This document shows positions 1-53,440 of a stretch of 64,000 bases of DNA, in pieces (the first letter of the stretch is position 1; each line of letters opens with the position of its first letter). Origin of the DNA: Candidatus Iainarchaeum sp. (GTDB taxonomy: Archaea > Iainarchaeota > Iainarchaeia > Iainarchaeales > JAGVWC01); assembly GCA_018304465.1 (NCBI GenBank), contig JAGVWC010000010.1:243473-307472 (forward strand). The letters are read 5' to 3'. A program made the translations under genes and the position numbers. The notes under the pieces are model-generated. The model did no database searches and was not told the DNA's origin. It saw nothing but the letters and a program-made list of their open reading frames with translations.

Positions 1-2
1 AA

Positions 3-1040
3 GAAACTCCCGAAACCCAACCCAAAGAATTTTTTACCCAAACAACAGTAAACCTTTCAGAGGATCTTGTGCTAAAAGAATTCCAACTCGCCCCCAATTC
101 AATTCAAGTTTTGGATACTTCAACCGAAATGTTGGTTCTATCCGTTGATTCGAATCAATCAAAAAGACTACCCAACGACATCTCCACTGAAAATGCAATA
201 GTCATCAAAGGAAAAATGAACATCAACCAATCCCAAGAAACCCCCATAACAGATCCTCTGCACTCCGACACCTGCTACAAAAAGTATCTATTAACCGGAG
301 AATGGCCCACCACTGAATGCTCCGCTACCAACACAATTTGGATCGGAACCGATTCGATAACTCAAACCATCAACACAAACCCCTTCGCCTACACCTGCGG
401 AGACCAAAAATGCAGTCAAAATTTGGGAGTTATTCTTACACAGTATATTGTTCCTCCACTAAAAGAATTTTTTACTGGTACAGATGGAGGAAGGTATTTT
501 CGCATTTCCTATACTGAAAAAGGAAAGGGTCAAGATCTTGAAGCCTGTTTAAACAAATTGGGAATAGCGAAAGACGAAATTATTCAGCACATCAACAACA
601 AGATTCTTATCCCCCATACCCCGATAGAGAAATACAATCAGCATATTGGGCAATATAGAGAGAATGGGTTAGATTGCAGTGTCTTCTATGAATCGGTTGC
701 ATTTAAAGAAAGCGGCGGTACAAAAGGTTGTGAAAAAAGTTGCGAACCGCCAGAAAAGTATATCCGAAATCCCCCAATAAGTTATCCGTCTTTTATTCCA
801 ACAGAGCATTTAGACGATTGGGTTGAAAGAATAATTAGACATAACAACGTCGAAAATGGGTGGCCTACATTAGATAGGTTTAAACCTTTTTCAGACATTG
901 GAATAATTATCGTGGAAGGAGCAGGGGTAGCTGCGGGAGCACTAATACTATGGGAAGCTACAAAACCTGTTCGATGCTTACTTGCCGCTTTTTTAGCTCC
1001 TGAAACAATTGGAGGAAGTGTAGTATTATGCGTAAGTTGA
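3..1040 (+). CDS. C-terminal part of a larger uncharacterised protein, 5' truncated by window edge
   Basis: Frame is open to position 3 upstream of the tracked GTG at 69 (ETPETQPKEFFTQTTVNLSEDL...), with no stop; ends in a hydrophobic segment. Confidence 0.6.
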   Translation, partial: ETPETQPKEFFTQTTVNLSEDLVLKEFQLAPNSIQVLDTSTEMLVLSVDSNQSKRLPNDISTENAIVIKGKMNINQSQETPITDPLHSDTCYKKYLLTGEWPTTECSATNTIWIGTDSITQTINTNPFAYTCGDQKCSQNLGVILTQYIVPPLKEFFTGTDGGRYFRISYTEKGKGQDLEACLNKLGIAKDEIIQHINNKILIPHTPIEKYNQHIGQYRENGLDCSVFYESVAFKESGGTKGCEKSCEPPEKYIRNPPISYPSFIPTEHLDDWVERIIRHNNVENGWPTLDRFKPFSDIGIIIVEGAGVAAGALILWEATKPVRCLLAAFLAPETIGGSVVLCVS

Positions 1041-1570
1041 CAAACATGGAAAAAAAGTTCGATGTCAGCTTAGTTCTGGCTAACACTAAAAATGCCAATA
1101 ACCTAAAACTTCTGTATGAAATATTGTGTTTCTGTAAAGAAATCGGTGCAGTAACCCTTGAAATAGAGTTTGTGAACCCAGATATCTTTACGGGAAAAGA
1201 TTTTGTTAATCCAGTTTTTTTCGATCGCCTAAAGGTGTGCGTTAGCCTGCCAGGAGAACGGGTTCGATACGAAAAACCAAAAAGAAAAGAGGAAATAGGC
1301 CATGAAAAATTGCATTATCTTAAAGCTAATTTTGACTCTCTTTTTATTGAGTGGTATAAAGAAAATAGCCTAATGACTTTTAACGTATTTAATTTGCAAT
1401 TATTTGACAAAAACGGATCCGTTGTTGCAGACTTTACCGACGATCAGCTTAGTATTCACATATATTCTTTGAGTAAACAAGAGTTAGAAAAAGTAAGAAA
1501 AATTGCGAAAAAATATTCCGTAGATAGTACTACTGACACGGCTAAAACCTTAATAAAAAAATGGCACTAG
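1028..1570 (+). CDS. Uncharacterised 180 aa protein, immunity-like by position
   Basis: ORF overlapping the 3' end of the upstream CDS by 13 nt; alternative ATG at 1046. Confidence 0.55.
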   Translation: MRKLTNMEKKFDVSLVLANTKNANNLKLLYEILCFCKEIGAVTLEIEFVNPDIFTGKDFVNPVFFDRLKVCVSLPGERVRYEKPKRKEEIGHEKLHYLKANFDSLFIEWYKENSLMTFNVFNLQLFDKNGSVVADFTDDQLSIHIYSLSKQELEKVRKIAKKYSVDSTTDTAKTLIKKWH

Positions 1571-1699
1571 GGACTTCGCCCATATGACCCTAAGTAAGCG
1601 TGTGTTCCACCAAACCCGAATGCTCCAAATGCGTATCCGTATAATGCATTTCATCGCAATTACCACAAGCATAATAAGGCTGACATTGGGGATCACAAG

Positions 1700-2278
1700 A
1701 TGCAAAAAGGGATCGAATACGAATATTTTGCCGACGAAAATGAAGGCAGCATACGGTTTTTGTTTCAGGGCACAGGCAGACTTGACGCACTTGAAGTCGT
1801 GAAACGTATCGTAGGAAAAAAAAGTGCAGAAATTCCCGCAAACCAATACCTCGGAAAAGAATTCATATATGAAGGACAACGACTGGTGCTGTCGTTTGCA
1901 AAAAACGGTGTGAACATAAACATCAAAAGAGTTGGTGGCCAAGTATTTGGTGAAATGGATGGCCTCCTGCTAAAAGACAATACCGTCGTAATACTAGAAT
2001 CAAAAACAGGCACCGTGGCCAAAATAGTGGAAGACTTGAGCACGCAGCTACCAAGAAACATTAATGCCATCAACAACCTTTCTCAAAAAACAACAACAGA
2101 AGCGCTTATCGCGATCCCAAAAGGCACAACCGAAGAAATAAAAGCGCTTGCAATAAACAATTCCAATCTCAACGCGCTCATCAACCAAGGAAAAATACAT
2201 TTCATTGAAATAACGCAGACAAGCGATGAACTGCTTGCAACTGCGAATACGGTAAAAGACCTTATAGGTGGCGGGTAG
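1700..2278 (+). CDS. PD-(D/E)XK-like nuclease module, possible orphan toxin tip
   Basis: Motif GEMDGLLLKDNTVVILESKTG resembles a D-x(n)-E-x-K nuclease core; frame open back to 1598. Confidence 0.5.
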   Translation: MQKGIEYEYFADENEGSIRFLFQGTGRLDALEVVKRIVGKKSAEIPANQYLGKEFIYEGQRLVLSFAKNGVNINIKRVGGQVFGEMDGLLLKDNTVVILESKTGTVAKIVEDLSTQLPRNINAINNLSQKTTTEALIAIPKGTTEEIKALAINNSNLNALINQGKIHFIEITQTSDELLATANTVKDLIGGG

Positions 2279-2983
2279 ATGAAGGACGATACGATTAGAG
2301 AAGAATACCTAAAACTAAATAAAGACCATGAATCGTTAAAAGAGCAAAAAAGGCCCGGAAATGCGCATTTGGGGGGATTTTATGTACGATTAGATCCGAA
2401 TCGAGGAACCTCTTTATCTGGCTCAGTAAGCGAGTTCGGTGTTTGCGATTTTAGTTATGAGGAAAGAAAATTTTTTTCAGAAGAAGATCGGCAAAAAAAA
2501 GTATCCAAATTAATTGAAACCTTCGGATACGCAATCAGTCTTATTTTTCTGAGTTTTGGAGAGAGTGATATCGTTATTTGGCTACAACTCCCACTTGGCA
2601 GAAAAGAAATCCAAGAAATCCTGGATTTTCTACCTTCGACAGGGACATTCAAAAAATACGAAACCCCAATCATACACACCTTGGCAAATGACGAGCAAGT
2701 ACAAAAAGCACGCAACGATTTTTATCAAAAACTTTCTGAATGTGTCGACGGCCAGCAGACCGAACATTGGCGTTTTTCGAAAGACATCGAACAAGAAAAA
2801 AAAACCGCGTTTCAAATAACCATAAACGAAGTAAAAAACATTCAAATAGGCAAAACAACAGGACACAACATTACGCTGGAATTTATGAAAAACTGCTCTA
2901 CTTTTAAAAAATACATTTTCCCCCTTGAAGAAAAAAGTTTCAAAAAAACAATTGAAAGGATTCGAAATGCGCAGGTAAAATAA
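2279..2983 (+). CDS. Uncharacterised 234 aa protein, candidate immunity partner
   Basis: ATG directly abuts the stop codon of the nuclease-like ORF (tagATG). Confidence 0.5.
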   Translation: MKDDTIREEYLKLNKDHESLKEQKRPGNAHLGGFYVRLDPNRGTSLSGSVSEFGVCDFSYEERKFFSEEDRQKKVSKLIETFGYAISLIFLSFGESDIVIWLQLPLGRKEIQEILDFLPSTGTFKKYETPIIHTLANDEQVQKARNDFYQKLSECVDGQQTEHWRFSKDIEQEKKTAFQITINEVKNIQIGKTTGHNITLEFMKNCSTFKKYIFPLEEKSFKKTIERIRNAQVK

Positions 2984-3361: not shown

Positions 3362-4276
3362 TCACGGAAAAGAATTTGCATGAACTGACTTTGGAAATAA
3401 GTTGATTCCTTCGGTTCGCAGTTGTTCCGCCAAAATAGGATTCCGTGTAATAACCATTTTGATCGAGACGTTTTCCATGTAAAGCGAATAGACTTTTGCC
3501 ATGTCGAACTGTTCCATTGATTTTGTTTTTTCAAACAACGCATTTAATCGTTGTTTAAACTCCGTTGGATAAAAAATTTGAGCCACATAATCCCCTTCAA
3601 TCACCAAATCACCGTCCGCCGGATAAGTGACCTGATGAATGGATTGCTTGCCCATCTTTTGGGTAAACGTATTCCCAAACTGGTCCAACACCCCAGCACC
3701 ATGATACAACCCATAATAGGGAACTTGAAAAATTTTTTTCACTTGCTCCAAATCGCTTGGATCCAAACCCACCGGAAGCCAAGGATGACCCAACAGGCAA
3801 ACACGAGATTTTTTATCCGGATTAGGAAATTGATCATTAAAGACCCAAATAACAAAACGAATTAACTCAACCATACTATGGAATTCCAAATTCAGCACCT
3901 CTTTTTGCAACCAATCGGAAGGCAAAGAATAATTGGAATAGGATTGTAGACGCGCACTAAACGCCTTTACATTTAATATCCACTCAGCACTTAACGAAAA
4001 TTTCGACCCGTTTTTGACAACGACCCGCTCACCCTCCAAACTATGAAGCATTTTATGAACCGCTTGGTAGGAAGCTGAAATGGCATATTCTTTTTTGATA
4101 TCCGAAAATATTTCCTTCAAACTCAAAGGATGCCGAACGCTAAGTAAACTAATAATCGCGTCTTTTGTTGAAAGTGTTTTTTTCCCAAAACCTGGCAGAA
4201 CAATCGAAAGAGCCATCCAAATCACTACGTATAGAACATACAAAACATCGATAACCGGATTTATAAACATAACCAA
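3362..4276 (-). CDS. Winged-HTH protein (paralogue family member 1), N-terminal TM segment
   Basis: SLLSVRHPLSLKEIFSDIKKEYAISASYQAVHKMLHSLEGERVVVKNG wHTH pattern shared with ORFs at 9686 and 10585. Confidence 0.65.
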   Translation of the reverse strand: MVMFINPVIDVLYVLYVVIWMALSIVLPGFGKKTLSTKDAIISLLSVRHPLSLKEIFSDIKKEYAISASYQAVHKMLHSLEGERVVVKNGSKFSLSAEWILNVKAFSARLQSYSNYSLPSDWLQKEVLNLEFHSMVELIRFVIWVFNDQFPNPDKKSRVCLLGHPWLPVGLDPSDLEQVKKIFQVPYYGLYHGAGVLDQFGNTFTQKMGKQSIHQVTYPADGDLVIEGDYVAQIFYPTEFKQRLNALFEKTKSMEQFDMAKVYSLYMENVSIKMVITRNPILAEQLRTEGINLFPKSVHANSFP

Positions 4277-9685: not shown

Positions 9686-10552
9686 TCAGGAATGGGCGTA
9701 AAGAGAATTTATCTGGTCAAACGCCATCTTTGCCATTTGCGGATTTCGATAAACCCGGACTTTAATGGAGACACTAAGTGGCTTTTTAGCTAAAAATCGG
9801 GCGTAATGCAAAAAAACATCCAACAAGTTATTCGTCTTATCATATAGTGATTCTAGCCAGCGTCTGGAGTCCGAAGAAAAATCCACTTCCCAGTAATATG
9901 AACCAATTACTCCGAAATCTTTTTCAAAATTTCCGGAAGGATTGATCCGCACGGAAAAACCTGCATCAGAATACATTTTTTGCGCCCAACGATTAAAGTT
10001 AGTGTCTCGCGTAATCACCACGCAAATCTGTCCAGGAGTTGCATCAGACATTTTTTTTAACAAAGAAAAATCAGAAAAACGAAACGACAAAGGAAACCAC
10101 GCATTTCGAATCAACGCCATTGTCTTGTCGCCTTTTCGAACTGATTTTCCAAGTGTGACGAAAATTTTTGCCATTCCAACGCAAAACTCACTTATATCAG
10201 AGAATTCAAGAATCGTATCAGAGCCAAAAGAGATGGGAACACGCCTTGATTTAGAGCGTCGGAACTCCGAGTCTAACTCGCGTGAAAAATTTTTCAAGCT
10301 CAAAACCCACTGGGGATTCAACTCGAATTTTTTTTGTTTTGAAACCAGAACATCTTCCGCTTCAAGAGAAACCAACATTTTGTGCACGGCTTGGTACGAC
10401 ACGCGATCTACTAGCGTCCAATCCATTTTTTCAAAAACGCCTTTTGCAGAAAGCGGGCCCTGCTGGCCAAGAATCAAAATAATTTGATCACGTGTGGAAG
10501 ACTTTCCTAAAAGAATTGGCAATACCCCCATAGATAACCCACTACATAACAA
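9686..10552 (-). CDS. Winged-HTH protein (paralogue family member 2)
   Basis: WTLVDRVSYQAVHKMLVSLEAEDVLVSKQKKFELNPQWVLSLKNFS aligns by eye with 3362 and 10585 ORFs. Confidence 0.65.
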   Translation of the reverse strand: MLCSGLSMGVLPILLGKSSTRDQIILILGQQGPLSAKGVFEKMDWTLVDRVSYQAVHKMLVSLEAEDVLVSKQKKFELNPQWVLSLKNFSRELDSEFRRSKSRRVPISFGSDTILEFSDISEFCVGMAKIFVTLGKSVRKGDKTMALIRNAWFPLSFRFSDFSLLKKMSDATPGQICVVITRDTNFNRWAQKMYSDAGFSVRINPSGNFEKDFGVIGSYYWEVDFSSDSRRWLESLYDKTNNLLDVFLHYARFLAKKPLSVSIKVRVYRNPQMAKMAFDQINSLYAHS

Positions 10553-10584: not shown

Positions 10585-11436
10585 ATGCAAGAATTCTGGT
10601 CCATTCCGGCGGCTCACGGCAACACCACTGTCAAAGACTGGACCATCCGGATTCTCACCCAAGAATGGCCGCTGTCGTTAAAACAAATTACGGAGCGCGT
10701 CCAACAGCAATCCGGAAAAACCGTTTCTCAACAAGCCGTGTTCAAAACGCTTCAAGATTTGGTTCGACAAAAAGTCGTTGAAAAACACGACAAGAGTTAC
10801 GCATTAAACAAAGAATGGATCACGCACCTCGCGAAATCCGTTCAAGATCTCCAGACCACGTATGAAAACCACGCTGGCCAATTGCCCGCACTCGGAAAAC
10901 TTGACACCAAAACCGTAATCGAATTTCATGATCCAAGCGCCGTCGCGGTCACCGTCGCCCAGATTCTGGCCTCGCGCGTACTCACCCAAGGAAAACCGGA
11001 ACCGTTTTATGGAATCAAACGACACGGCTTGTGGCCGCTTCGATTCAGCTTTTCCGACTTCGAACTCTTAAAAGAAATGACCAAATCCATTCCGTGTTAT
11101 TGCGCCGTAATCGGAAATGACCCCTTTGACCGATGGGTGGTTGAACAATACCTTAAAGGCGGATTCAAAAAATCCAAAACCGGCGCCAAAGCCGAATTCA
11201 AAGAATGGGACATCATGGCCCACGGAGAATACGTACTGACCATTCAATACGCCAAAGAAACCGAACAAGCCATCGAATACCTGTTCAAACAAATCAACAA
11301 CCTAAGCGAACTATTCGAAAAATTCAGCCAAGAAGAACTGTCCAAATTCAAATTCCAAGCAACGTTAACAATCGAACGAAACCCGGACCTCGCACGGCTC
11401 ATCAAAGAAAAATGCATGAAAATATTGGAAGAGTAA
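10585..11436 (+). CDS. Winged-HTH protein (paralogue family member 3)
   Basis: VSQQAVFKTLQDLVRQKVVEKHDKSYALNKEWITHLAKS; C-terminal W-P-x-x-F-S-DF-ELLKEM block shared with 9686 ORF. Confidence 0.7.
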   Translation: MQEFWSIPAAHGNTTVKDWTIRILTQEWPLSLKQITERVQQQSGKTVSQQAVFKTLQDLVRQKVVEKHDKSYALNKEWITHLAKSVQDLQTTYENHAGQLPALGKLDTKTVIEFHDPSAVAVTVAQILASRVLTQGKPEPFYGIKRHGLWPLRFSFSDFELLKEMTKSIPCYCAVIGNDPFDRWVVEQYLKGGFKKSKTGAKAEFKEWDIMAHGEYVLTIQYAKETEQAIEYLFKQINNLSELFEKFSQEELSKFKFQATLTIERNPDLARLIKEKCMKILEE

Positions 11437-11503: not shown

Positions 11504-12661
11504 CTATTGGTTTTGGTATAGGTCTTTGCAGGATTGGACTGCTTCTTGGGTACTGAGTTCGTCACAGAGCGCAGTGTTTTGAGCGTTGATAATGATTGCG
11601 ATGATGCATAAATCAGGATTTTCGAGTTGTTTGCATATGGCGGGGTCCATCCGGGTAATCGCAATTTTTTTCATGCAACGTTCTTTTTCGGTTGTGGCTT
11701 TGCATGCTTCCAGGTCGTCTTTGGCGACTGCAACGTCCGAGAAACAAGTCTCTTCTTGATTGAGGCCTTTGCATAAGTTGGCGTCTTTTTTTGCGACGGC
11801 TACGCGCGAGATGCAAATATCACGAAACATTGCGAGTTCGGGATTTTTCGGGAGGGTTTCGCATATTTTTTCATCTTTTGCTTGTTCTGCTTGTGCAGTC
11901 GTGGTTTGTATGGTGGACCACAGGCTGTCCAACGTTGTTTGGTATCCTTTTTGGGCGGTATCCAAGCACACTTGTTTTTGAGTCGGGGTCGTAAAATTTT
12001 CGCATATCGTGGCGTCTTTTGTTTTTTCGACTACCGCAAACATGCAATTGATGCGAAAGCCGTCTAGCCGAGCCTTGCATAGGTCGTCTTGGCAGGCGGT
12101 CGGATGTTTTTCCAAAGTGACTTCTTTGCATCCTTCGAGTGTTCCAGTCTGACCGCTGACGATCGCAATGCATTGAAGTTTATAGACTTCTGATATGATT
12201 TTGTTGCAGATTTCGATATTTTGCGTTCTGTTCGCATCTTCCAATAACGCATCGGTAACCCCGCTGCTACAATACGAACCAGACCCAAGTTTTTCGCAGA
12301 CGCTATAATCCCGAAGGGTAACTGCCACTCCTTGAATGCAAGTTTGTATACCGCTTTGAGAGGTTAAGGCATTACACATCTTCAAATCGCCTCGTTTCCC
12401 TCCGATCTCAGCCAAACACTGGTCTTTTCGAATCGAAACAAAAAAAGAATCCGTGAGCAAATCGCAGATTTGCATGTTGTCTGCTTCTACGGCAACGTTT
12501 GTAATGCAAATGGACCGATTAAGCTCTTGATCAATTGTATTGCACTCCGCCAAAGCGGATTCAACATCTGAATTTAACGCGGTGTTGCTCTGCCCTAGTG
12601 GCGGGCTAGTACATCCAACGAATAAGAGGGCGATGATCAGGAGTAACAACATACGATTCAT
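11504..12661 (-). CDS. Putative lipoprotein with repeated Cys-pair units
   Basis: LLIIALLFVGC lipobox-like signal; repeated C-x(8-15)-C-x-x-x-(V/I)A(V/I)-x-x-x-D-x-x-x-C pattern. Confidence 0.75.
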   Translation of the reverse strand: MNRMLLLLIIALLFVGCTSPPLGQSNTALNSDVESALAECNTIDQELNRSICITNVAVEADNMQICDLLTDSFFVSIRKDQCLAEIGGKRGDLKMCNALTSQSGIQTCIQGVAVTLRDYSVCEKLGSGSYCSSGVTDALLEDANRTQNIEICNKIISEVYKLQCIAIVSGQTGTLEGCKEVTLEKHPTACQDDLCKARLDGFRINCMFAVVEKTKDATICENFTTPTQKQVCLDTAQKGYQTTLDSLWSTIQTTTAQAEQAKDEKICETLPKNPELAMFRDICISRVAVAKKDANLCKGLNQEETCFSDVAVAKDDLEACKATTEKERCMKKIAITRMDPAICKQLENPDLCIIAIIINAQNTALCDELSTQEAVQSCKDLYQNQ

Positions 12662-13281
12662 TTTTCCACATCCTTTTCAGGTAGTTCTTTTCCTACTGCT
12701 TGCGCGATTTTTTCTTGATCTATTGGATTCTCGGGCTGAAACATATCCCGATAATTTGGCTGAAACATATTCTTGTACAACTGAAGCAGAATCCCTTTAT
12801 GGAATGGGACTATGCTATAAACACCTGCTTGTTTGACTTTATCCACATTTATTTTCTTTTTTTCTTTTTCTCCGAAATAAATGATCGGGTGAATATAATC
12901 GTAAGGCCGCCACTTATCGAGTTCGAGTTCATGATCTCCGATTCCCCACTCCGGATTTGCTTCTTCAATCACGGTTTTGATTATTTCTAAAAAATACTTG
13001 AAGGTTTCTTCCGGATTATCTAGAACTATGCCCGTTTTTTGAGTAAAAACACTGATGCTTGTGCTTCGCTTACCGGAACGTACATTAAACTGTGTTTCTT
13101 TTTTATTAATCTTCAAAGTATATCCGACGTACCCGTACTGGCGTTCATAAAGGCCGGGAAGCGGTTCTTCAAGAGTCACTGTAAAATTTTTCAACCGCAA
13201 TGCTTGCTCAATTTTTTTTAGGATTGGTTCTTTTTCGATGGTGGTCGGAACAAAAGTCATAAAGTCATAGGTATATCCCAT
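12658..13281 (-). CDS. Candidate immunity protein, translationally coupled to the 697 aa upstream protein
   Basis: ATG at 13281..13279 overlaps the upstream stop (TAATG); tracked start at 13296 overlaps further. Confidence 0.55.
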   Translation of the reverse strand: MGYTYDFMTFVPTTIEKEPILKKIEQALRLKNFTVTLEEPLPGLYERQYGYVGYTLKINKKETQFNVRSGKRSTSISVFTQKTGIVLDNPEETFKYFLEIIKTVIEEANPEWGIGDHELELDKWRPYDYIHPIIYFGEKEKKKINVDKVKQAGVYSIVPFHKGILLQLYKNMFQPNYRDMFQPENPIDQEKIAQAVGKELPEKDVEK

Positions 13282-15374
13282 TAGATGTCCCCCCATAGTC
13301 TTACTTTTACGCCAATATTCTCAAACTCGATTAATAATTTGGAATCGATAGGTTGTTTGGTTATAAGCCACGCCTCGTCTGCTATGCTTGGATTGTTTGC
13401 TACGTAGGAAACTAATTCTTGTAATTGTGCTTTTACCTCATCTATTTCAGGCGTTTTCATCGCAATGAAGTTTTCGTTTTTTACTTCGGCTAGAACTTTT
13501 TTGTTTGTCGTTGTTTCAAGATAAATGTCTGCTTTTTTGTTTGCGTACTCGAATTCTTTGATTGTGTTTCCGTTTGTTTTTAGTTTTTCAGCGGCTTCGA
13601 GTTGGGCTTTGTATCCTTTAACACTATCTTGAGATATACTAGACCCAATATCTCCTGCCACAGTATCAATTCCTTTGGTATTTTTAAAAGTATCAATTCG
13701 AATTAGCGTATCTGATGCTAAACTTTCTTTTTGCCCTATCTCTGCGATCCCGGTTATTCCTCGATCACTCCATTCGAGTGTGCTTGTTCCGGCGATTCGG
13801 CCGACTTTTTCTCCGATTTCTTCGCTGTAATTTGCGATTACAGTTTGGTATCCTCTTTTGTTCAGTAATTTTGAAAGGATGGTGTCAGAGGCAGCTCCTA
13901 ATCGTGTAGCGATTCCTTCGACTTTTTCGCTGAAAACGATGCGTAAGGGTTCGGGAATGCTCTCGAAGAATTGTGTGAGTTTTTCGGCATCGTTTCCGAG
14001 CGCTTTGGTGATGCGCCCCAATCCAGTGGCTGCTTTTTCGCCTGCCTCAATAATGGGTTTAGTCCATTCGAGTCTTTGAAGAAGGGTAGCGGTTTGGTAG
14101 CCAAATTTGTTTCCAATAATTCGGATCAGGTCGGTAAATTTGTCGATTTTTTGAACGATTTTAAGGGCTTTGATGGCGTCTGCAATTTTTCCAACCAAAA
14201 CCGCTTGTTCGATAACATAACCGCCAATGAATCCTTGGACGTACCCAACTTGAAATGCCCGATATTCGAGTCTCTGAGTGACTGGGTTGGCAGGGTTTCT
14301 GGTTGTTCCGACTTTGTAAATGTCTATGACCGCATTGCCGAGTGCGTCGCCGATATGTTCCAACGCTTGGGGGAAGATGCGAACAATGTCAATGACGCCG
14401 CTTGCAATTTGAGTAACTTGGTCTTGGCGGTAGATAAAGCTTAGGGCGCCGTTTAATACTTGTTGGGCAAAGTCCAAATCGTCTTTGGCGCCTTTGAAAG
14501 TGCCGTCCACGAATCCTAAAAACAAGCCCGTACAATTGGAGGCAATGGAGTAAATGCGTAAGGTTTCTTTGTTGGAATCGTATAAAAGTATGACGACTTG
14601 AGTTCCTTTGGAAAAAGATTCGAGTTCGCTATTGTTTTCGAACACTTGTTTTAACGGAATCGATTCCGATTGAATTTGAACATCCAATGGTACAAAACTC
14701 GTGAGCAATTCTTGGGAATTCAGACTGTTGGCAGAGATCGGATTAGACAGCAATTCGAGTTGTTCGGAGTTGAGTTGTTCAAGATTATCTTGAATTTGTT
14801 GCTTTTCGAGCGGATTCACGCCCCCCAATAACCAGGTCATTGGATTTCCGCACGAAGTGTAAAAATCGTCAAAGACCATGGTAGCCGGATTATCATAATA
14901 GTTACCCGGATCCGTTCCAAACAACAACTCTTTTTCGTAAACAAATCCATCACAATCCGCATCATCCAAACACCCTCCGATCACAACGGTTTTTTCCAAA
15001 TAACCGTTTTTGTACCCCACTTTGGACGCAATGAACCGATACGAATGAGCGCCGACCGGAGGCGCCACATCAGAATACAACGCGGTTCCATCACTACCCG
15101 TCACCACAGAACCAAACCGATTGGGGTCGTAACTTGGAATCACCCCCACTAAGACATCCGAAAGCGGAATACCCACCGTATTCGTTGTTTGGATCGAAAA
15201 ACGAATCGTTGGATCCCGGGAAGCACCATCGAATTCAAGCGCATAATCCACGGTAAACGGCACTGCTTCGGCGTTAAATTTTTCCTCTGAAAAAGATTGA
15301 AAAACAACGAAACTGACGGCTATCAACAAAAAAAGAAAACTCGCCACAAATGCTTTTTTCAAGACGCTGTCCAC
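13281..15374 (-). CDS. Large secreted/membrane-anchored protein with C-terminal PD-(D/E)XK-like domain, candidate polymorphic toxin
   Basis: N-terminal TM anchor; Ig-like region; DDADCDGFVYEKELLFGTDP Ca-binding-like motif; helical middle; C-terminal KKADIYLETTTNKKVLAEVKNEN nuclease-like core. Confidence 0.6.
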   Translation of the reverse strand: MDSVLKKAFVASFLFLLIAVSFVVFQSFSEEKFNAEAVPFTVDYALEFDGASRDPTIRFSIQTTNTVGIPLSDVLVGVIPSYDPNRFGSVVTGSDGTALYSDVAPPVGAHSYRFIASKVGYKNGYLEKTVVIGGCLDDADCDGFVYEKELLFGTDPGNYYDNPATMVFDDFYTSCGNPMTWLLGGVNPLEKQQIQDNLEQLNSEQLELLSNPISANSLNSQELLTSFVPLDVQIQSESIPLKQVFENNSELESFSKGTQVVILLYDSNKETLRIYSIASNCTGLFLGFVDGTFKGAKDDLDFAQQVLNGALSFIYRQDQVTQIASGVIDIVRIFPQALEHIGDALGNAVIDIYKVGTTRNPANPVTQRLEYRAFQVGYVQGFIGGYVIEQAVLVGKIADAIKALKIVQKIDKFTDLIRIIGNKFGYQTATLLQRLEWTKPIIEAGEKAATGLGRITKALGNDAEKLTQFFESIPEPLRIVFSEKVEGIATRLGAASDTILSKLLNKRGYQTVIANYSEEIGEKVGRIAGTSTLEWSDRGITGIAEIGQKESLASDTLIRIDTFKNTKGIDTVAGDIGSSISQDSVKGYKAQLEAAEKLKTNGNTIKEFEYANKKADIYLETTTNKKVLAEVKNENFIAMKTPEIDEVKAQLQELVSYVANNPSIADEAWLITKQPIDSKLLIEFENIGVKVRLWGDI

Positions 15375-15447: not shown

Positions 15448-16005
15448 TTATTTGAGTTCCAATTGGTCTTTGGGTTCTTCTTTGGAAAAATCGAATTCGT
15501 GCACGGGTTTGACGATGAACTCGCAGGTTTTTTGATTCAAGGCAATGCACTGGTGTTCCACGCAATCCAAGTCGTTTCGAAACAACGCCGAAAACACGCC
15601 CGCAAACACGCCCCGCAACACGTGATCCACGGGTTTTTTCGCCTTGTTCACCAAACTACCCGCAATCGGATTATGATCCACCACCAAAATCGCGCGCTTG
15701 TTTTCCACGTCCAAATGCACGATCGAAACCCCGCCGATTCCGCACGCCGAAAAAAACTCGGCCAAAAACCGGGCGTTTAATTCCACGGAATTCGAAAGCG
15801 AAAAACCCGACACCAACGACCCTGCCACTTGTTTTTTAACCGCAGCGTACACCGCCCGATTAGTGGCCGGATCCGAGATCTCGGCCAGCCCCACCAAAAT
15901 ATCCACGGGAAGAATCGCAAACGGCGTGTTCATCAAAAAAAACTGGTTATTGGAAAACCGAATACCATTCGTGAAAATAAACCGGTCAAAAAACGGATTT
16001 AACAT
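15448..16005 (-). CDS. V4R-domain protein
   Basis: FFSACGIGGVSIVHLDVENKRAILVVDHNPIAGSL...LRGVFAGVFSALFRNDLDCVEHQCIALNQKTCEFIV; start chosen at MLNPFF (SD ggtg upstream) rather than tracked 16155. Confidence 0.8.
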   Translation of the reverse strand: MLNPFFDRFIFTNGIRFSNNQFFLMNTPFAILPVDILVGLAEISDPATNRAVYAAVKKQVAGSLVSGFSLSNSVELNARFLAEFFSACGIGGVSIVHLDVENKRAILVVDHNPIAGSLVNKAKKPVDHVLRGVFAGVFSALFRNDLDCVEHQCIALNQKTCEFIVKPVHEFDFSKEEPKDQLELK

Positions 16006-16093
16006 ACTTACACCAAAGGAGGTTCCCCCATAAAAAAATACCGAAAGACCCAAAAGAAAGGCTTTTTTAAGGAAAAACAACCACCAATCTATC

Positions 16094-17050
16094 ATGACGA
16101 CCACGTTCACGATGGATTTGCATTCGCATGTCATCGAAAAAAAAGTCAAAGCCAAGGATTACTGGAAAAACGTCGAACAAAAAAAAATCGACGTCATGGC
16201 CATCACCGAACACGCCCACTTCGATATCCGAAAAGCCTTTGAACGCGTCGCCAAAGAAAAACCCCGCGACAAAATACTGGTTCCCGGCGTCGAACTCAAC
16301 ACCGACATCGGACACGTCTTGTGCTACGGGCCCGACGAACGCGTATACGACCACAAAGAATTATTCGAATTCGAAGTACCCATCGAAACCTGCGTCGAAC
16401 ACGCCAAACAAGACAACTTAGTCTTAAGCTGCGCGCACCCCTGGGGATACACCCAAGACAGCGCCGCGTTTTTAATCGGACCCAAAAAACTCATGAAACT
16501 CATTCGAAAATACCCGATCGGAATCGAAGCCTACAACGGCATGGTCGGACACCTCTCCGACATCATGTACGAAAGCGGCTGGATCCGCCGACCCAACAAC
16601 TTTTTGGGTTTTCTTCAAAAAAACCGGGTCACGCGAAAAATCGGAATCGGCTCCGTCGGAGAAAAACTCCAAAAATCCCTCGACCGCCTCGTGTACAGCT
16701 ACCTAAACCGCATCACGGCCAGCGTCGAACTCGGCGAAAGCGCTTCGTTTATCACCGCCGGAAGCGACGGCCACTCCGCGGACCGCCTCGGCGAAGGCAT
16801 GCTCAAAATCAAAAGCCAAACCGAACTCAACACCCCCGAAGACATACTCGACTTAGTGGTGCATCACAAACAAGACGTGGTCTGGTGCGGCGTTGGCGTC
16901 CGCGAAGTCCGACCCGGCGTACTCGAAAAAATTTCGCCCCAAAAAATCAAACGCATGGAACTCGTCGACGGCCTCAAATACCTGGCCATGCGAAAAATCC
17001 GCGAACGCGTGATCGCCGACCGAAAAAAACGCGAACAACCCCACCCCTAA
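16094..17050 (+). CDS. PHP-domain metal-dependent phosphoesterase
   Basis: MDLHSHV, AITEHAHFD, CAHPWG, GSDGHS motifs. Confidence 0.85.
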   Translation: MTTTFTMDLHSHVIEKKVKAKDYWKNVEQKKIDVMAITEHAHFDIRKAFERVAKEKPRDKILVPGVELNTDIGHVLCYGPDERVYDHKELFEFEVPIETCVEHAKQDNLVLSCAHPWGYTQDSAAFLIGPKKLMKLIRKYPIGIEAYNGMVGHLSDIMYESGWIRRPNNFLGFLQKNRVTRKIGIGSVGEKLQKSLDRLVYSYLNRITASVELGESASFITAGSDGHSADRLGEGMLKIKSQTELNTPEDILDLVVHHKQDVVWCGVGVREVRPGVLEKISPQKIKRMELVDGLKYLAMRKIRERVIADRKKREQPHP

Positions 17051-48532: not shown

Positions 48533-51500
48533 ATGAGTACACCGGAAAAAAAGATCGCGTCCGGCCAAAAACCCAAAATTTTTCGAGAAAACGTGGGAAA
48601 AGGAAACGCCATGGAAGACGAATTCGAACTAGACATAGGGCAATTAGAAGCCGAAAGCGACGAAAGCCCGTACATGGCCAAATTCAAATCTTTTTTTGAA
48701 AACAGTTACTTAAAAGACATCGAAAAACTCGCCAACCAATGGCCGCACCACAAATCCCTTGAAATCGATTTCAAAGACCTTGAACACTTCGATTTTGAAA
48801 CCGCGGACGAACTCCTCGAACACCCCGACGTATTACTCGAAGCCGCGGAAATGGCGGTTCAAAGCATCAATATTCCCGCGTTTGACGTCAAAGACTTCAA
48901 ACCCCACGTTCGATTTTACAATTTACCCAAAGACCGCGTTCCGTATCTGCGAAACATCGGATCCGAACACCTCGGAAAACTCACCACGGTCGAAGGCCTC
49001 GTCCGTCAAGTCACGGACGTATTACCCAAACTTAAAATCGCGGCCTGGCAATGCCGCCGCTGCGCCAACGTCTACAAAAAAGAACAGGAAACCGACAAAA
49101 TCACGCAACCCATGATGTGCGAATGCAAACACCGCGAATTCGTACTCCTACCCGAACAATCCGTTTTCATGGACTCCCAAAAAATACTGGTTCAAGAACC
49201 CCTTGAATTATTGAAAGGAAGCGAACAAGCCACGAACTTCGAAGTCATTGTCACCGACGACCTGGTCAACAAAATTCTTCCCGGAGACCGCACCAAAATC
49301 ACGGGCATCGTGCGCCTCAAAACCCCCAAAGAAAAAGGACTCATTTTCCAGCGATTCATGGACGCGCTGCACTTGGAAGAAACCGCCAAAGAATTCGACG
49401 AAGTCGAATCTTCACCCGAAGAAATCGAAGCCGTTCGACAACTCGCCAAAACCCCGAAAATTTACGACATCCTCATTCAAAGCATCGCTCCCAACATTTA
49501 CGGTCACAACGACCTCAAAGAAGCCATCGCATTGCAATTATTCGGCGGCATCACCAAACTATTGCCCAACGAAAGCAAGGTCCGCGGAAACATTCACGTT
49601 TTGCTGGTTGGAGACCCTGGTTGCCTGGTCGGAGACGAACGCGTCGCACTCGGAAACGGGGCCATTGAACGAATCGAAAAACTCGGAACCGAACACCTCC
49701 AAGAAATCAGCACTCAAGTCTTGACTGGCGAAGGACAAGCCAAACGAGACTGGGCGACCGCATTCCATTACTATGCGAACCAACCCGTCATGGAAATCAT
49801 CACTGAAAGCGGAAAAAGCATCAAAGGCACATTGAACCACCCCTTGCTATGCGTTTCAAAAGAAAACGGAAAACCCAAGCGCGATTGGAAACGATTAGAC
49901 GAATTCCAAATCGGAGACAAAGTAGCGGTGGTCACCCACATCCCTTGCACGATCAAAAGATACATTCCCACAGATTTTACCCAAAGACCAAAAACACTCG
50001 GACCCAAGTTTAAAGGAAAACTGCCCGCCAAAGTCACTCCTGAATTGGCCGGACTATTCGGATACATCGTTGGCGACGGCTGGGTCACCCAATACAAAAC
50101 AGGTTTTGTCGTCAATGACCAAGAAAAAGACCTGTTACCCAAATTGTTAAATGCAAGCCAACGCTTGTTTGGCATCAAACCGATTCCCCATATTCGAACA
50201 CTCCTGGAACGAAAAATGCCTTTATATTATTCGGAAATCAACTCGAAAGACATCGCGCAAAACCTGAAATTTCTCGCAGAAAAAAGAGTACCGGAACTAG
50301 TCATGAGATCCGGAAACAAAGTCGCGGCCGAATTCCTAAAATGGTTGTTCGAAGCAGACGGTTGTTGTTTCTGCAAAGGCAGAGGCCGCCGAGCCATCGC
50401 ATTGAAAGCCAAGAACATTGAACTGCTCCGCGACGTACAAATGTTGCTGTTGCGCTTTTCAATTCACTCACGCATCACTTCAAACGCACTTCAAATCAGA
50501 CGTGGAAAAGACATTCAAAAATACGTCCAACACATCGGATTTGCATCTGCCAAAAAAAGAGCAAAGCTTAAACAACTCGCCAAAGAAGCCAAATCGTTTG
50601 CCCGATTCAATTCGCAACGCAGCGAAAAAATAGTCAAAATCATCCATCACCCCGTCGAAGACGTTTTCGACATCGAAGTACCCGCCGGACACCGATTCAT
50701 CGCCAACGGAGTTATTTCGCATAACACCGCAAAATCACAGCTATTGCAAAGCGTGCACAAAATCGCGCCGAAAGCGGTTTACGTTACGGGGAAAACTTCT
50801 ACTGGCGCCGGTCTGTGCATTGCTCCCGACTCGCTGATTTTAAATGACAACGGATTCAAGTCAGTGCAGGAATTCGTCGAATCGAATTTCAACGAGACAA
50901 GCGCAAAAGAAGAAATCCCTAATGCATGGAGCAATGATTTTCTCGGAGTCGCACATTCATTAAGTAATACGCTTGATTTCGTGGAAGCGCCAGTCGAAAA
51001 AATCTGGCGAATCAAACCCCCCGAAAAGATGTTCAAGATCACTACCCGTACCGGAAGATCACTTTCCTTGACTCCCGCTACAAGCCTGATTCGAATTAAG
51101 AATGGAAAGATCGAGTGGATTTCGGCAAGCGAATTGCAAACTGGCGACTACGTTGCAACCCCCCGGAACTTACCCGAAGGAAACGTGAAAAAAATCCCCA
51201 CGATCCAGATTCTTGCTTCAACCCCAAACATAAAAACCGGTGATCCCTTGGCGGTGTGGATAAAGGAAATAACCGACCGACTTATTCCAAAGTATGGCAG
51301 TCTTCAAGCGATCGCAAAAAAAATTGGAAAAAGCCGTAATACGCTTTATGCGGTACGAAATCCAAAATTCTTCCATGGATGGGAATTAAAAACCGTTATC
51401 GCACTGGCTACCGAAGCAGGATATACTGAAAGCGAAATCAGCGAAAAGATTACAACTCTATTTATAAGCCACGGGAAAAATTTTCGCATTCCACGCCATA

Positions 51501-53440
51501 TCGATAACCCGGATCTTGCATATCTTGCCGGGCTTGCACTCGGAGATGGAAACTTCATCGAGGATCCCAAACGAGGTATGATTCGAATCGCTTGCGCCGA
51601 TCCCGAACTCTTGAATGAAGCAACCCGAATAATTCAAACCCAATTCGGCATTGAACCAGAACGTTTTGATGATGGAGAACGCGTACCGGGTATACGCGTC
51701 AATTACAAAGCTATTGCCGAACTCCTAAAAGCCTTCGGTTTACACCCGAAAAAAACCCAAAACCAAATTTCGCACTTGGCAACCGAGATGTCGAATCCGA
51801 TTCTTGCTCGGTTATTGCAAGGCCTTTTCGATACAGACGGATATGTTGCAACACACAAGAATGGCTCACCTTCGGTTGGAATCAGTTCAGTAAGCCCCCT
51901 TCTTGCACAAACCCTACAACTCGCACTGCTAAAATTCGGAATTATCTCAAGGAAACGGGTTCGGAAAATTGCTGGAAAGACCTCAGTTGGAAAAACCATC
52001 CACGTAACAAGTCGCAACGATGCACATGTAATCGAAATCACAGACAGACACAACTTAGCCCTCTTTAGTCAGCAAATCGGGTTCGCGCTTTCCAGAAAAC
52101 AAGAAGCACTGGAGAAAGTCATCGCAGGAATCTCTTGTTCCAACACGAACATCGATGTAATACCAGAGATCCACAACCAATTGAAAGAGCTCAACTTGGA
52201 CTGGGAGTATACGCATCAAAAGAGAAGAATTTCGACCGCACGACTGCAACAACTCACTCAAAACCTTCCTAACGACCATTTCCTAAAAAAACTGGGTTGC
52301 GCCAATATTTTCTGGGATCAAATCAAAACGAAAGAACCGTTCAAACCAGAATACCAATACGTTTACGACTTCAGCGTGAAAGAACATCACAATTTCATTG
52401 CCAACGGATTTTTCGTCCACAACACCGCGACCGCGGTAAAAGACGATTTCGGAGAAGGCGGATGGACCCTAAAAGCCGGAGCCCTCGTACTCGCCAACGG
52501 CGGAATGGCCATGATCGACGAATTCGACAAAATGGACCCCGAAGACCGGTCCGCCATGCACGAAGCCATGGAACAAGGAATGATTTCGGTTGCCAAAGCC
52601 GGAATCGTCACGCGCCTCAAAACCGAAACCACGATTCTTGCCGCCGCCAACCCGAAATTCTCACGGTTTGACCAATTCAAAAACTTCTTCGAACAAATCG
52701 ATTTGCCACCCACGTTGATTTCCCGTTTCGACTTGTTTTTCATGATCCGCGACGTACTGGACCGAAAACGCGACGAAGAAATCTCCGCGCACATCCTCAA
52801 AATCCACCAAACCGGCGCCATCATGCGCCAGCACAAGGTTTCACGCGATCATTTGAAAGCCGAAGACCTCGCCGACCAAAAAGCCATTACCCCCATCATC
52901 GACAACAACATGCTCAAAAAATACATCGCGTTCGCGCGACAACAAGTATTTCCCGTGCTCACCAAAGAAGCCATCAAATCCATTTCCGAATACTACGTGA
53001 ACCTGCGCGAACAAGGAAAAAAAGAAGGCACGTACTCGGCCACGCACCGACAACTCGAAGGACTCGTACGATTATCCGAAGCCAGCGCGCGCATCCGCTT
53101 GTCCGACACCGTCGAAGAAATCGACGCGGCCCGCGCGATTCGCCTGCTTCGAACCTCGCTCCAAGAACTCGTCACGGACAAAGAAACCGGACGCATCGAC
53201 ATCGATTTGCTCACCACCGGACAATCCACCAACCAAACCCAACAATTAAAAACGATTTTAAACATCGTGAAATCGCTTTCGCAAGAACACGACAAAGTAC
53301 TCGTGGACCAGGTACTCGAAGAAGCGGGCCAAGCCGGAATCGACAAGGAAAAAGGCCGCGACCTGATTTCCAAACTCAAACGCAGCGGCGAACTATACGA
53401 ACCCAGCCACGGCGTACTAAAACCCGTGCAACGGGAATAA
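48533..53440 (+). CDS. mcm: MCM replicative helicase with two inteins
   Basis: N-terminal OB/Zn domain; split LLVGDPG+TAKSQLLQSV and GKTSTGAGL+TATAVKDDFGEGGWTLKAGALVLANGGMAMIDEFDKM. Confidence 0.97.
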   Translation: MSTPEKKIASGQKPKIFRENVGKGNAMEDEFELDIGQLEAESDESPYMAKFKSFFENSYLKDIEKLANQWPHHKSLEIDFKDLEHFDFETADELLEHPDVLLEAAEMAVQSINIPAFDVKDFKPHVRFYNLPKDRVPYLRNIGSEHLGKLTTVEGLVRQVTDVLPKLKIAAWQCRRCANVYKKEQETDKITQPMMCECKHREFVLLPEQSVFMDSQKILVQEPLELLKGSEQATNFEVIVTDDLVNKILPGDRTKITGIVRLKTPKEKGLIFQRFMDALHLEETAKEFDEVESSPEEIEAVRQLAKTPKIYDILIQSIAPNIYGHNDLKEAIALQLFGGITKLLPNESKVRGNIHVLLVGDPGCLVGDERVALGNGAIERIEKLGTEHLQEISTQVLTGEGQAKRDWATAFHYYANQPVMEIITESGKSIKGTLNHPLLCVSKENGKPKRDWKRLDEFQIGDKVAVVTHIPCTIKRYIPTDFTQRPKTLGPKFKGKLPAKVTPELAGLFGYIVGDGWVTQYKTGFVVNDQEKDLLPKLLNASQRLFGIKPIPHIRTLLERKMPLYYSEINSKDIAQNLKFLAEKRVPELVMRSGNKVAAEFLKWLFEADGCCFCKGRGRRAIALKAKNIELLRDVQMLLLRFSIHSRITSNALQIRRGKDIQKYVQHIGFASAKKRAKLKQLAKEAKSFARFNSQRSEKIVKIIHHPVEDVFDIEVPAGHRFIANGVISHNTAKSQLLQSVHKIAPKAVYVTGKTSTGAGLCIAPDSLILNDNGFKSVQEFVESNFNETSAKEEIPNAWSNDFLGVAHSLSNTLDFVEAPVEKIWRIKPPEKMFKITTRTGRSLSLTPATSLIRIKNGKIEWISASELQTGDYVATPRNLPEGNVKKIPTIQILASTPNIKTGDPLAVWIKEITDRLIPKYGSLQAIAKKIGKSRNTLYAVRNPKFFHGWELKTVIALATEAGYTESEISEKITTLFISHGKNFRIPRHIDNPDLAYLAGLALGDGNFIEDPKRGMIRIACADPELLNEATRIIQTQFGIEPERFDDGERVPGIRVNYKAIAELLKAFGLHPKKTQNQISHLATEMSNPILARLLQGLFDTDGYVATHKNGSPSVGISSVSPLLAQTLQLALLKFGIISRKRVRKIAGKTSVGKTIHVTSRNDAHVIEITDRHNLALFSQQIGFALSRKQEALEKVIAGISCSNTNIDVIPEIHNQLKELNLDWEYTHQKRRISTARLQQLTQNLPNDHFLKKLGCANIFWDQIKTKEPFKPEYQYVYDFSVKEHHNFIANGFFVHNTATAVKDDFGEGGWTLKAGALVLANGGMAMIDEFDKMDPEDRSAMHEAMEQGMISVAKAGIVTRLKTETTILAAANPKFSRFDQFKNFFEQIDLPPTLISRFDLFFMIRDVLDRKRDEEISAHILKIHQTGAIMRQHKVSRDHLKAEDLADQKAITPIIDNNMLKKYIAFARQQVFPVLTKEAIKSISEYYVNLREQGKKEGTYSATHRQLEGLVRLSEASARIRLSDTVEEIDAARAIRLLRTSLQELVTDKETGRIDIDLLTTGQSTNQTQQLKTILNIVKSLSQEHDKVLVDQVLEEAGQAGIDKEKGRDLISKLKRSGELYEPSHGVLKPVQRE
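49622..50725 (+). mobile_element. MCM intein 1 (368 aa), LAGLIDADG type
   Basis: CLVGDERVALGNG... to ...GHRFIANGVISHN, +1 Thr, within Walker A; LFGYIVGDGW and LKWLFEADGC. Confidence 0.95.
50816..52423 (+). mobile_element. MCM intein 2 (536 aa), LAGLIDADG type with HTH
   Basis: CIAPDSLILNDNGF... to ...HHNFIANGFFVHN, +1 Thr; LAGLALGDGNF and LLQGLFDTDGYV. Confidence 0.95.

What the first reader, a model, noticed from the sequence alone, without database searches (positions are those of the whole stretch)
11504..15374. Candidate archaeal polymorphic toxin/immunity/lipoprotein operon
The 697 aa protein has an N-terminal TM anchor, an Ig-like region, a DxDxDG-like Ca-binding motif, a helical middle and a C-terminal PD-(D/E)XK-like module (KKADIYLETTTNKKVLAEVKNEN). 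This resembles polymorphic toxin architecture. Its stop overlaps the next start (TAATG at 13283..13279), and that gene overlaps a repeat-rich lipoprotein gene (ATGA). Tight coupling to an uncharacterised partner fits toxin/immunity. Toxin function is inferred.
Basis: partly seen in the sequence, partly recalled or inferred. Interest (0 to 1): 0.8.

Follow-up and report, generated by a model that had tools for sequence, protein, structure and literature searches.

The report
Archaeal surface nuclease toxin with immunity
A small archaeon, placed by its nearest named relative in the Diapherotrites, carries a cell-surface protein whose tail is predicted to be a DNA- or RNA-cutting toxin, followed directly by the likely gene for its own protection; this is a real but previously recognised kind of microbial weapon, here in a lineage where it is almost unstudied.

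Summary
In detail: a 697-aa anchored protein (13281..15374, -), TAATG-coupled to a 207-aa gene (12658..13281), which is ATGA-coupled to a lipoprotein. The toxin/immunity reading holds; the lipoprotein does not belong. The C-terminus is predicted to fold as PD-(D/E)XK (pLDDT 78; top Foldseek hits are nearly all PD-(D/E)XK nucleases), with D616, E630, K632 and Q650 invariant in six homologues. The partner is cytosolic-looking and recurs directly downstream of PD-(D/E)XK-type ends: five of five further loci found with partner queries (three in the same order, two haloarchaeal) carry such an end just upstream. The best Pfam hit of most close homologues and of the Halorussus one is TsiV (immunity to T6SS VRR-Nuc effectors), below cut-off; the model's best fold match is a T6SS effector-immunity complex. 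Relatives show swapped C-termini on conserved N-termini and stand-alone toxin cassettes, including a cassette and a paralogue at the window's left end. This is a polymorphic toxin system: known kind, known in archaea, new members in Diapherotrites. Toxicity, substrate and delivery are inferred. The lipoprotein is a common Cys-repeat family not tied to these loci.

The parts
13281..15374 (-). Polymorphic toxin protein, 697 aa: N-terminal anchor, Ig-like domain, TSP3-like Ca-binding motif, helical pre-toxin region, C-terminal nuclease
15282..15374 (-). N-terminal signal/TM anchor (residues 1-31)
   Evidence: hydropathy scan
14976..15212 (-). Ig-like / CarboxypepD-reg-like domain (residues 55-133), shared with the paralogue at the window's left end
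   Evidence: 51% identity to L002; Pfam CarboxypepD_reg scores in relatives
14907..14972 (-). DxDxDG TSP3-like calcium-binding motif (residues 135-156)
   Evidence: sequence; TSP3_bac (PF18884) in relatives at the equivalent place; alignment
13695..14447 (-). Helical pre-toxin region (about residues 310-560)
   Evidence: conserved in A3 with invariant Q and three G; profile search
13284..13679 (-). C-terminal PD-(D/E)XK-like nuclease domain (residues 566-697); D616, E630, K632, Q650 invariant in six homologues
   Evidence: AF2 model pLDDT 78, pTM 0.72; Foldseek; alignments A2/A6; residue numbers
12658..13281 (-). Predicted immunity protein, 207 aa (alternative start 13296, 212 aa); no signal or TM segment
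   Evidence: adjacency in homologous loci; TsiV sub-threshold in homologues; fold match 9oz0_A
1..1040 (+). C-terminal part of a 642-aa paralogue whose gene starts about 0.9 kb upstream of the window; ends in a hydrophobic segment, no recognisable toxin domain
1028..1570 (+). Putative immunity protein of the paralogue (180 aa, 34% GC); inferred from position only
1700..2278 (+). Stand-alone toxin cassette, 192 aa; related to the C-terminus of a surface protein in G022
   Evidence: BLASTP E 1e-6 (two-sequence comparison) to the L049 C-terminus
2279..2983 (+). Putative immunity protein of the stand-alone cassette (234 aa); inferred from position only
15448..16155 (-). V4R-domain gene, positional neighbour of the toxin locus in several families; not known to be part of the system

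Best explanation
This is a polymorphic toxin and immunity pair. The 697-aa protein is exported by its N-terminal signal anchor and displayed on the cell surface, with Ig-like and calcium-binding stalk parts. Its C-terminal 115-130 residues form a PD-(D/E)XK nuclease that cuts nucleic acid once it is delivered into a competing cell. The 207-aa partner stays in the cytosol and blocks the nuclease, protecting producer and kin. The C-terminal toxin plus immunity gene is an exchangeable cassette; other toxins are mounted on related N-termini and spare cassettes are kept nearby. Shown here: architecture, predicted fold, conserved catalytic-type residues, partner linkage, C-terminal swapping, stand-alone cassettes. 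Inferred: nuclease activity, neutralisation, target, how the toxin is released and enters the target.
For: Fold: the AF2 model of residues 566-697 has a-b-b-b-a-b order, core pLDDT about 90; nearly all of the highest-ranked PDB matches are PD-(D/E)XK nucleases (NucS 2vld, Card1, XisH 2inb TM 0.56/0.58, HindIII 0.60, VRR-NUC 4qbn), although no match reached E 0.001. D616, E630, K632, Q650 invariant in six homologues. Linkage: the partner profile found new members in G030, G043 and G029, and tblastn with a partner protein found Halorussus and then Halomicrobium; in all five the gene directly upstream carries a D/E..(E/Q)xK motif near its C-terminus (5/5 against a 24% background for the loose pattern, binomial 7e-4). 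Partner homologues score best to TsiV PF11876, E 0.002-0.26; hhalign links A4 to the Halorussus partner, prob 97; the best full-length fold match is 9oz0_A of the T6SS pair PA3907-PA3908. Polymorphism: G033a and G033b are up to 92-98% identical in stretches between residues 354 and 650, then about 25% after 770; related carriers have other ends in G014, G022, G068; the G034 stand-alone cassette matches the G068 C-terminus at 46%.
Against: No toxin or immunity Pfam/NCBIfam/PADLOC family reaches its cut-off for the window's own proteins; TsiV is not among the window partner's hits. Different toxin subfamilies are not joined by profile comparison (prob 4%). Whether 9oz0 chain A is the immunity protein was not verified. 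The GC drop over the cassette (45 to 37%) is not rare in this window (6% of slices). No processing peptidase or secretion system was identified with the locus.
Confidence: 0.85

Rival explanations
1. A surface nuclease for DNA scavenging, uptake or against incoming phage DNA; the partner is a cytosolic inhibitor or chaperone rather than kin immunity.
For: PD-(D/E)XK domains are common in restriction and repair enzymes, which dominate the fold matches; the protein is anchored and exported.
Against: Different toxin-like ends sit on the same N-terminal part within one genome and between genomes, with stand-alone cassettes; the partner goes with the end type; PADLOC gives nothing.
Confidence: 0.09
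2. A three-gene system in which the lipoprotein is a working third part (receptor, surface immunity or delivery factor).
For: ATGA overlap with the partner gene, same strand.
Against: The Cys-repeat family is in 37 of 87 genomes, up to 13 hits each, and no listed hit lies on the toxin contigs of relatives; no homologue turned up among the genes around the relatives' loci; GC of the lipoprotein gene (46%) is unlike the cassette (37%).
Confidence: 0.05
3. An intracellular toxin-antitoxin or abortive-infection pair.
For: Tight two-gene coupling, nuclease plus small neutraliser.
Against: The toxin is fused to an exported, anchored multi-domain surface protein of about 700-2900 aa, which intracellular toxin-antitoxin systems lack.
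Confidence: 0.03

Closest known systems
Polymorphic toxin systems (Zhang et al. 2012, PMC3482391; archaeal survey Makarova et al. 2019, cited in PMC8416519)
   Same: Exported multi-domain protein, exchangeable C-terminal toxin, immunity gene next to it, stand-alone cassettes. Nuclease domains and Ig-containing effectors are reported for archaeal systems.
   Different: No RHS, HINT or known releasing peptidase found; lineage is Diapherotrites; the 2019 survey could not be read here, so exact overlap with it is unknown.
TseV/TsiV T6SS pairs (DUF3396, PF11876; PMC9635880)
   Same: PD-(D/E)XK nuclease toxin next to an immunity protein; the partner family scores best to TsiV in most of the homologues that have a hit.
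   Different: Scores are below Pfam's cut-off; no T6SS/PAAR part; the toxin gives no VRR-NUC Pfam hit.
TseT/TsiT (PA3907-PA3908; Tox-REase-5/Imm52)
   Same: Best full-length fold match of the partner model is 9oz0_A (TM 0.52/0.47).
   Different: No Imm52 or Tox-REase-5 Pfam hit; chain identity in 9oz0 not verified.
Haloarchaeal TSP3 toxin loci on plasmids (Halorussus caseinilyticus, Halomicrobium mukohataei pHmuk01)
   Same: TSP3 repeats and a C-terminal or separate E-x-K domain directly followed by the same partner family; Halomicrobium has three partner copies in a row.
   Different: Different N-terminal parts; many TSP3 repeats instead of an Ig-like stalk.
VARTIG modules of Thermococcales (PMC8416519)
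   Same: Large Ig-domain surface protein with variable C-terminus and co-directed downstream genes.
   Different: VARTIG has no recognisable nuclease; here the variable end is a predicted nuclease.

Membership tests
Polymorphic toxin system | Exported or surface-anchored multi-domain carrier protein | tested here: met
   N-terminal anchor, Ig-like and TSP3-like parts; export itself is predicted
Polymorphic toxin system | Toxin domain at the extreme C-terminus | tested here: met
   Predicted PD-(D/E)XK fold with conserved D, ExK, Q; prediction only
Polymorphic toxin system | Immunity gene directly downstream, tracking the toxin type | tested here: met
   Six homologous pairs plus 5 of 5 further loci found with partner queries
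Polymorphic toxin system | Different toxin domains on related N-terminal parts | tested here: met
   G033a/b; G014, G022, G068
Polymorphic toxin system | Stand-alone toxin/immunity cassettes | tested here: met
   window 1700..2983, L013 10242..11931, L016 4026..5306
Polymorphic toxin system | Known releasing peptidase (HINT, PrsW) or known secretion route | tested here: not met
   No such Pfam domain in the carrier; a common accessory, not present in every known system
Polymorphic toxin system | Toxicity and specific neutralisation | not testable with these tools
   needs an expression assay
PD-(D/E)XK nuclease superfamily | Core fold with D and (D/E)xK residues | tested here: met
   topology, one search matches, D616/E630/K632; by prediction
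VRR-NUC / TseV toxin | VRR-NUC sequence family | tested here: not met
   no Pfam hit; only a fold-level match 4qbn
TsiV / DUF3396 immunity (PF11876) | Score above the curated cut-off | tested here: not met
   homologues E 0.002-0.26, below 25 bits; window protein has no TsiV hit
TsiT / Imm52-like fold | Immunity fold | tested here: inconclusive
   9oz0_A TM 0.52/0.47, model pLDDT 70; chain identity not checked
VARTIG | Hypervariable C-terminal Ig domain, Thermococcales | tested here: not met
   C-terminus is a predicted nuclease; lineage differs

The most novel reading that the evidence does not exclude
Diapherotrites own a lineage-specific polymorphic toxin class: a carrier with its own helical pre-toxin domain, held at a conserved chromosomal spot beside V4R/KaiC/HTH genes, that delivers nucleases into neighbouring cells by a route unlike any known secretion or contact-dependent inhibition system.
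Probability: 0.2. Interest if true: 0.68.

Novelty: new member of a known kind. Interest (0 to 1): 0.46.

Why it matters
Archaeal polymorphic toxins are predicted but, as of 2021, had not been characterised experimentally (PMC8416519), and most bacterial immunity families were thought absent from archaea (PMC3482391). Here a nuclease toxin and a TsiV-like immunity family pair consistently in Diapherotrites and haloarchaea, giving a short, cytosol-testable pair. The haloarchaeal members come from cultured strains, so the delivery question could be approached there.

Tried and rejected
Family scans of the three proteins with Pfam, NCBIfam, PADLOC: nothing at cut-off. PHROGs for CTD and partners: only weak unrelated hits. 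PDB sequence searches with A1, A2, A4, A8: no meaningful match. Genome-contig scan with the 697-aa protein found no relative; the scan with the G052 core found only two records. Search of plasmids with the G007 CTD: none. Profile link between two toxin subfamilies (A6 and A7): not supported, so only motif and position join them. The partner hit in G021 (E 9e-4) was discarded: a short match in an ORF that looks like a different nuclease. GC shift as proof of recent transfer: rejected, since 6% of window slices are as low. KaiC as a linked gene: weak evidence, as the genome holds about ten copies. Lipoprotein as a component: rejected. The archaeal survey of Makarova et al. 2019 was not held, and a search centred on the Halorussus genome was not possible.

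Full report
WHAT IS THERE. The window lies in a 1.25-Mb genome, 92% complete. The nearest named relative carrying the core is LFW-281_4 (contig CABMIU010000039.1), listed as Diapherotrites in PMC8561730. The window's genome is in the same order as that one, so I place it in Diapherotrites; this is by kinship, not by a tree of my own. The partner has an alternative in-frame start at 13296.

THE LONG PROTEIN. Residues 1-31 are the only strongly hydrophobic stretch. Residues 55-133 are 51% identical to a paralogue that starts just outside the left end of the window. A DxDxDG motif follows; the equivalent place in relatives scores as TSP3. Residues 114-583 form a core shared with G007, G027 (two copies), G034 and G052. 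The relatives' full proteins run to 2892 aa.

THE C-TERMINUS. The six homologous C-terminal domains share D616, E630, K632 and Q650 (window numbering). The AF2 model made from those six has mean pLDDT 78, pTM 0.72, with the order helix-strand-strand-strand-helix-strand. Foldseek against the PDB returns at the top NucS, Card1, SfsA, XisH, AF1548, HindIII, EndoMS and, lower, VRR-NUC, mostly with probability 0.9-1.0 and TM up to 0.60. E-values are modest (2e-3 and up), as is usual for a short superfamily fold. I take the fold as likely, not proven.

THE PARTNER. It has no signal or TM segment. Its homologues sit directly after the toxin gene in G007, G027 (twice), G034 and G052. As a test of linkage I searched with the partner only. 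The profile found G030, G043 and G029, besides a G034 copy at a contig end and a discarded short hit in G021. A plasmid search with a partner protein found Halorussus caseinilyticus, and from that Halomicrobium mukohataei pHmuk01. In all five the gene directly upstream (in Halomicrobium, directly before the first of three partner copies) has a D/E...(E/Q)xK motif. The loose motif occurs in 24% of other ORF ends, so five of five has a binomial tail of 7e-4; the pattern was written after seeing the sequences, so this is a guide rather than a strict test. Pfam's best hit for four of five close homologues and for the Halorussus one is TsiV, an immunity family for PD-(D/E)XK T6SS effectors, always below cut-off. 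The window's own partner has no TsiV hit. Its model (pLDDT 70) has, as the only listed match with TM above 0.5 normalised to the query, the T6SS pair PA3907-PA3908 (9oz0_A); I could not verify which protein chain A is.

POLYMORPHISM. G033 has two proteins that are 92-98% identical in stretches of the middle and unrelated after about residue 770. The core or stalk carries other ends in G014, G022 and G068. The G022 end is related to the stand-alone 192-aa gene at window 1700..2278 (E 1e-6 in a two-sequence comparison). The G068 end is 46% identical to a stand-alone gene in G034, and stand-alone genes in G027 and G034 begin with a signal peptide and a piece of the core that lies just before the toxin junction. 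These are the marks of a polymorphic toxin system.

THE LIPOPROTEIN. Its Cys-repeat family is found in 37 of 87 genomes of the class, up to 13 hits in one, and no listed hit is on the toxin contigs of relatives. It is a neighbour, not a component, on present evidence.

NEIGHBOURHOOD. The V4R gene next to the toxin has one or two copies per genome where found, and lies within about 15 kb of the toxin locus in G000, G007 (both), G029 (both), G052 and G033 (one of two), also G014. In G022, G027, G030, G034 and G068 it is on another contig, so distance is unknown there. The HTH genes cluster near the toxin in G000, G029 and G068. The locus seems held in place while its C-terminal cassette changes. 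Whether V4R or HTH genes regulate it is unknown.

HOW IT WORKS. Exported and anchored carrier, nuclease tip delivered to a neighbour, cytosolic partner protects the producer. Architecture, fold and pairing are supported here; nuclease activity, release, entry and target are inferred.

NOVELTY. Polymorphic toxins in archaea, including Ig-containing effectors with nuclease ends, are already reported (PMC3482391, PMC6393860, PMC8416519). This is a new set of members, with a TsiV-like immunity family shared between Diapherotrites and haloarchaea. I score it as moderately interesting.

Noticed in passing
window 15448..16155: V4R gene, 1-2 copies per genome, repeatedly within about 15 kb of toxin loci in different families; suggests a conserved chromosomal site.
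   Followed up: partly
window 9686..10552, 10585..11436, 3362..4276: Family of about 280-aa HTH-like proteins without a clear Pfam match, clustered near toxin loci in G000, G029, G068.
   Followed up: partly
window 11504..12661: Cys-repeat lipoprotein of a family expanded across the class (13 hits in G028); function unknown.
   Followed up: partly
window 1..2983: Second toxin-type locus: truncated-looking paralogue end, low-GC 180-aa gene, stand-alone 192-aa cassette and 234-aa follower.
   Followed up: partly
L086 3085..6190: Halomicrobium mukohataei pHmuk01: E-x-K domain gene followed by three partner-family genes in a row, an immunity array.
   Followed up: partly
L013 8987..9469: The first G027 toxin is split: the C-terminal domain is in another frame near an ambiguous base in the assembly, either a frameshift or an assembly error.
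   Followed up: no
window 48533..53440: 1635-aa ORF, not examined.
   Followed up: no
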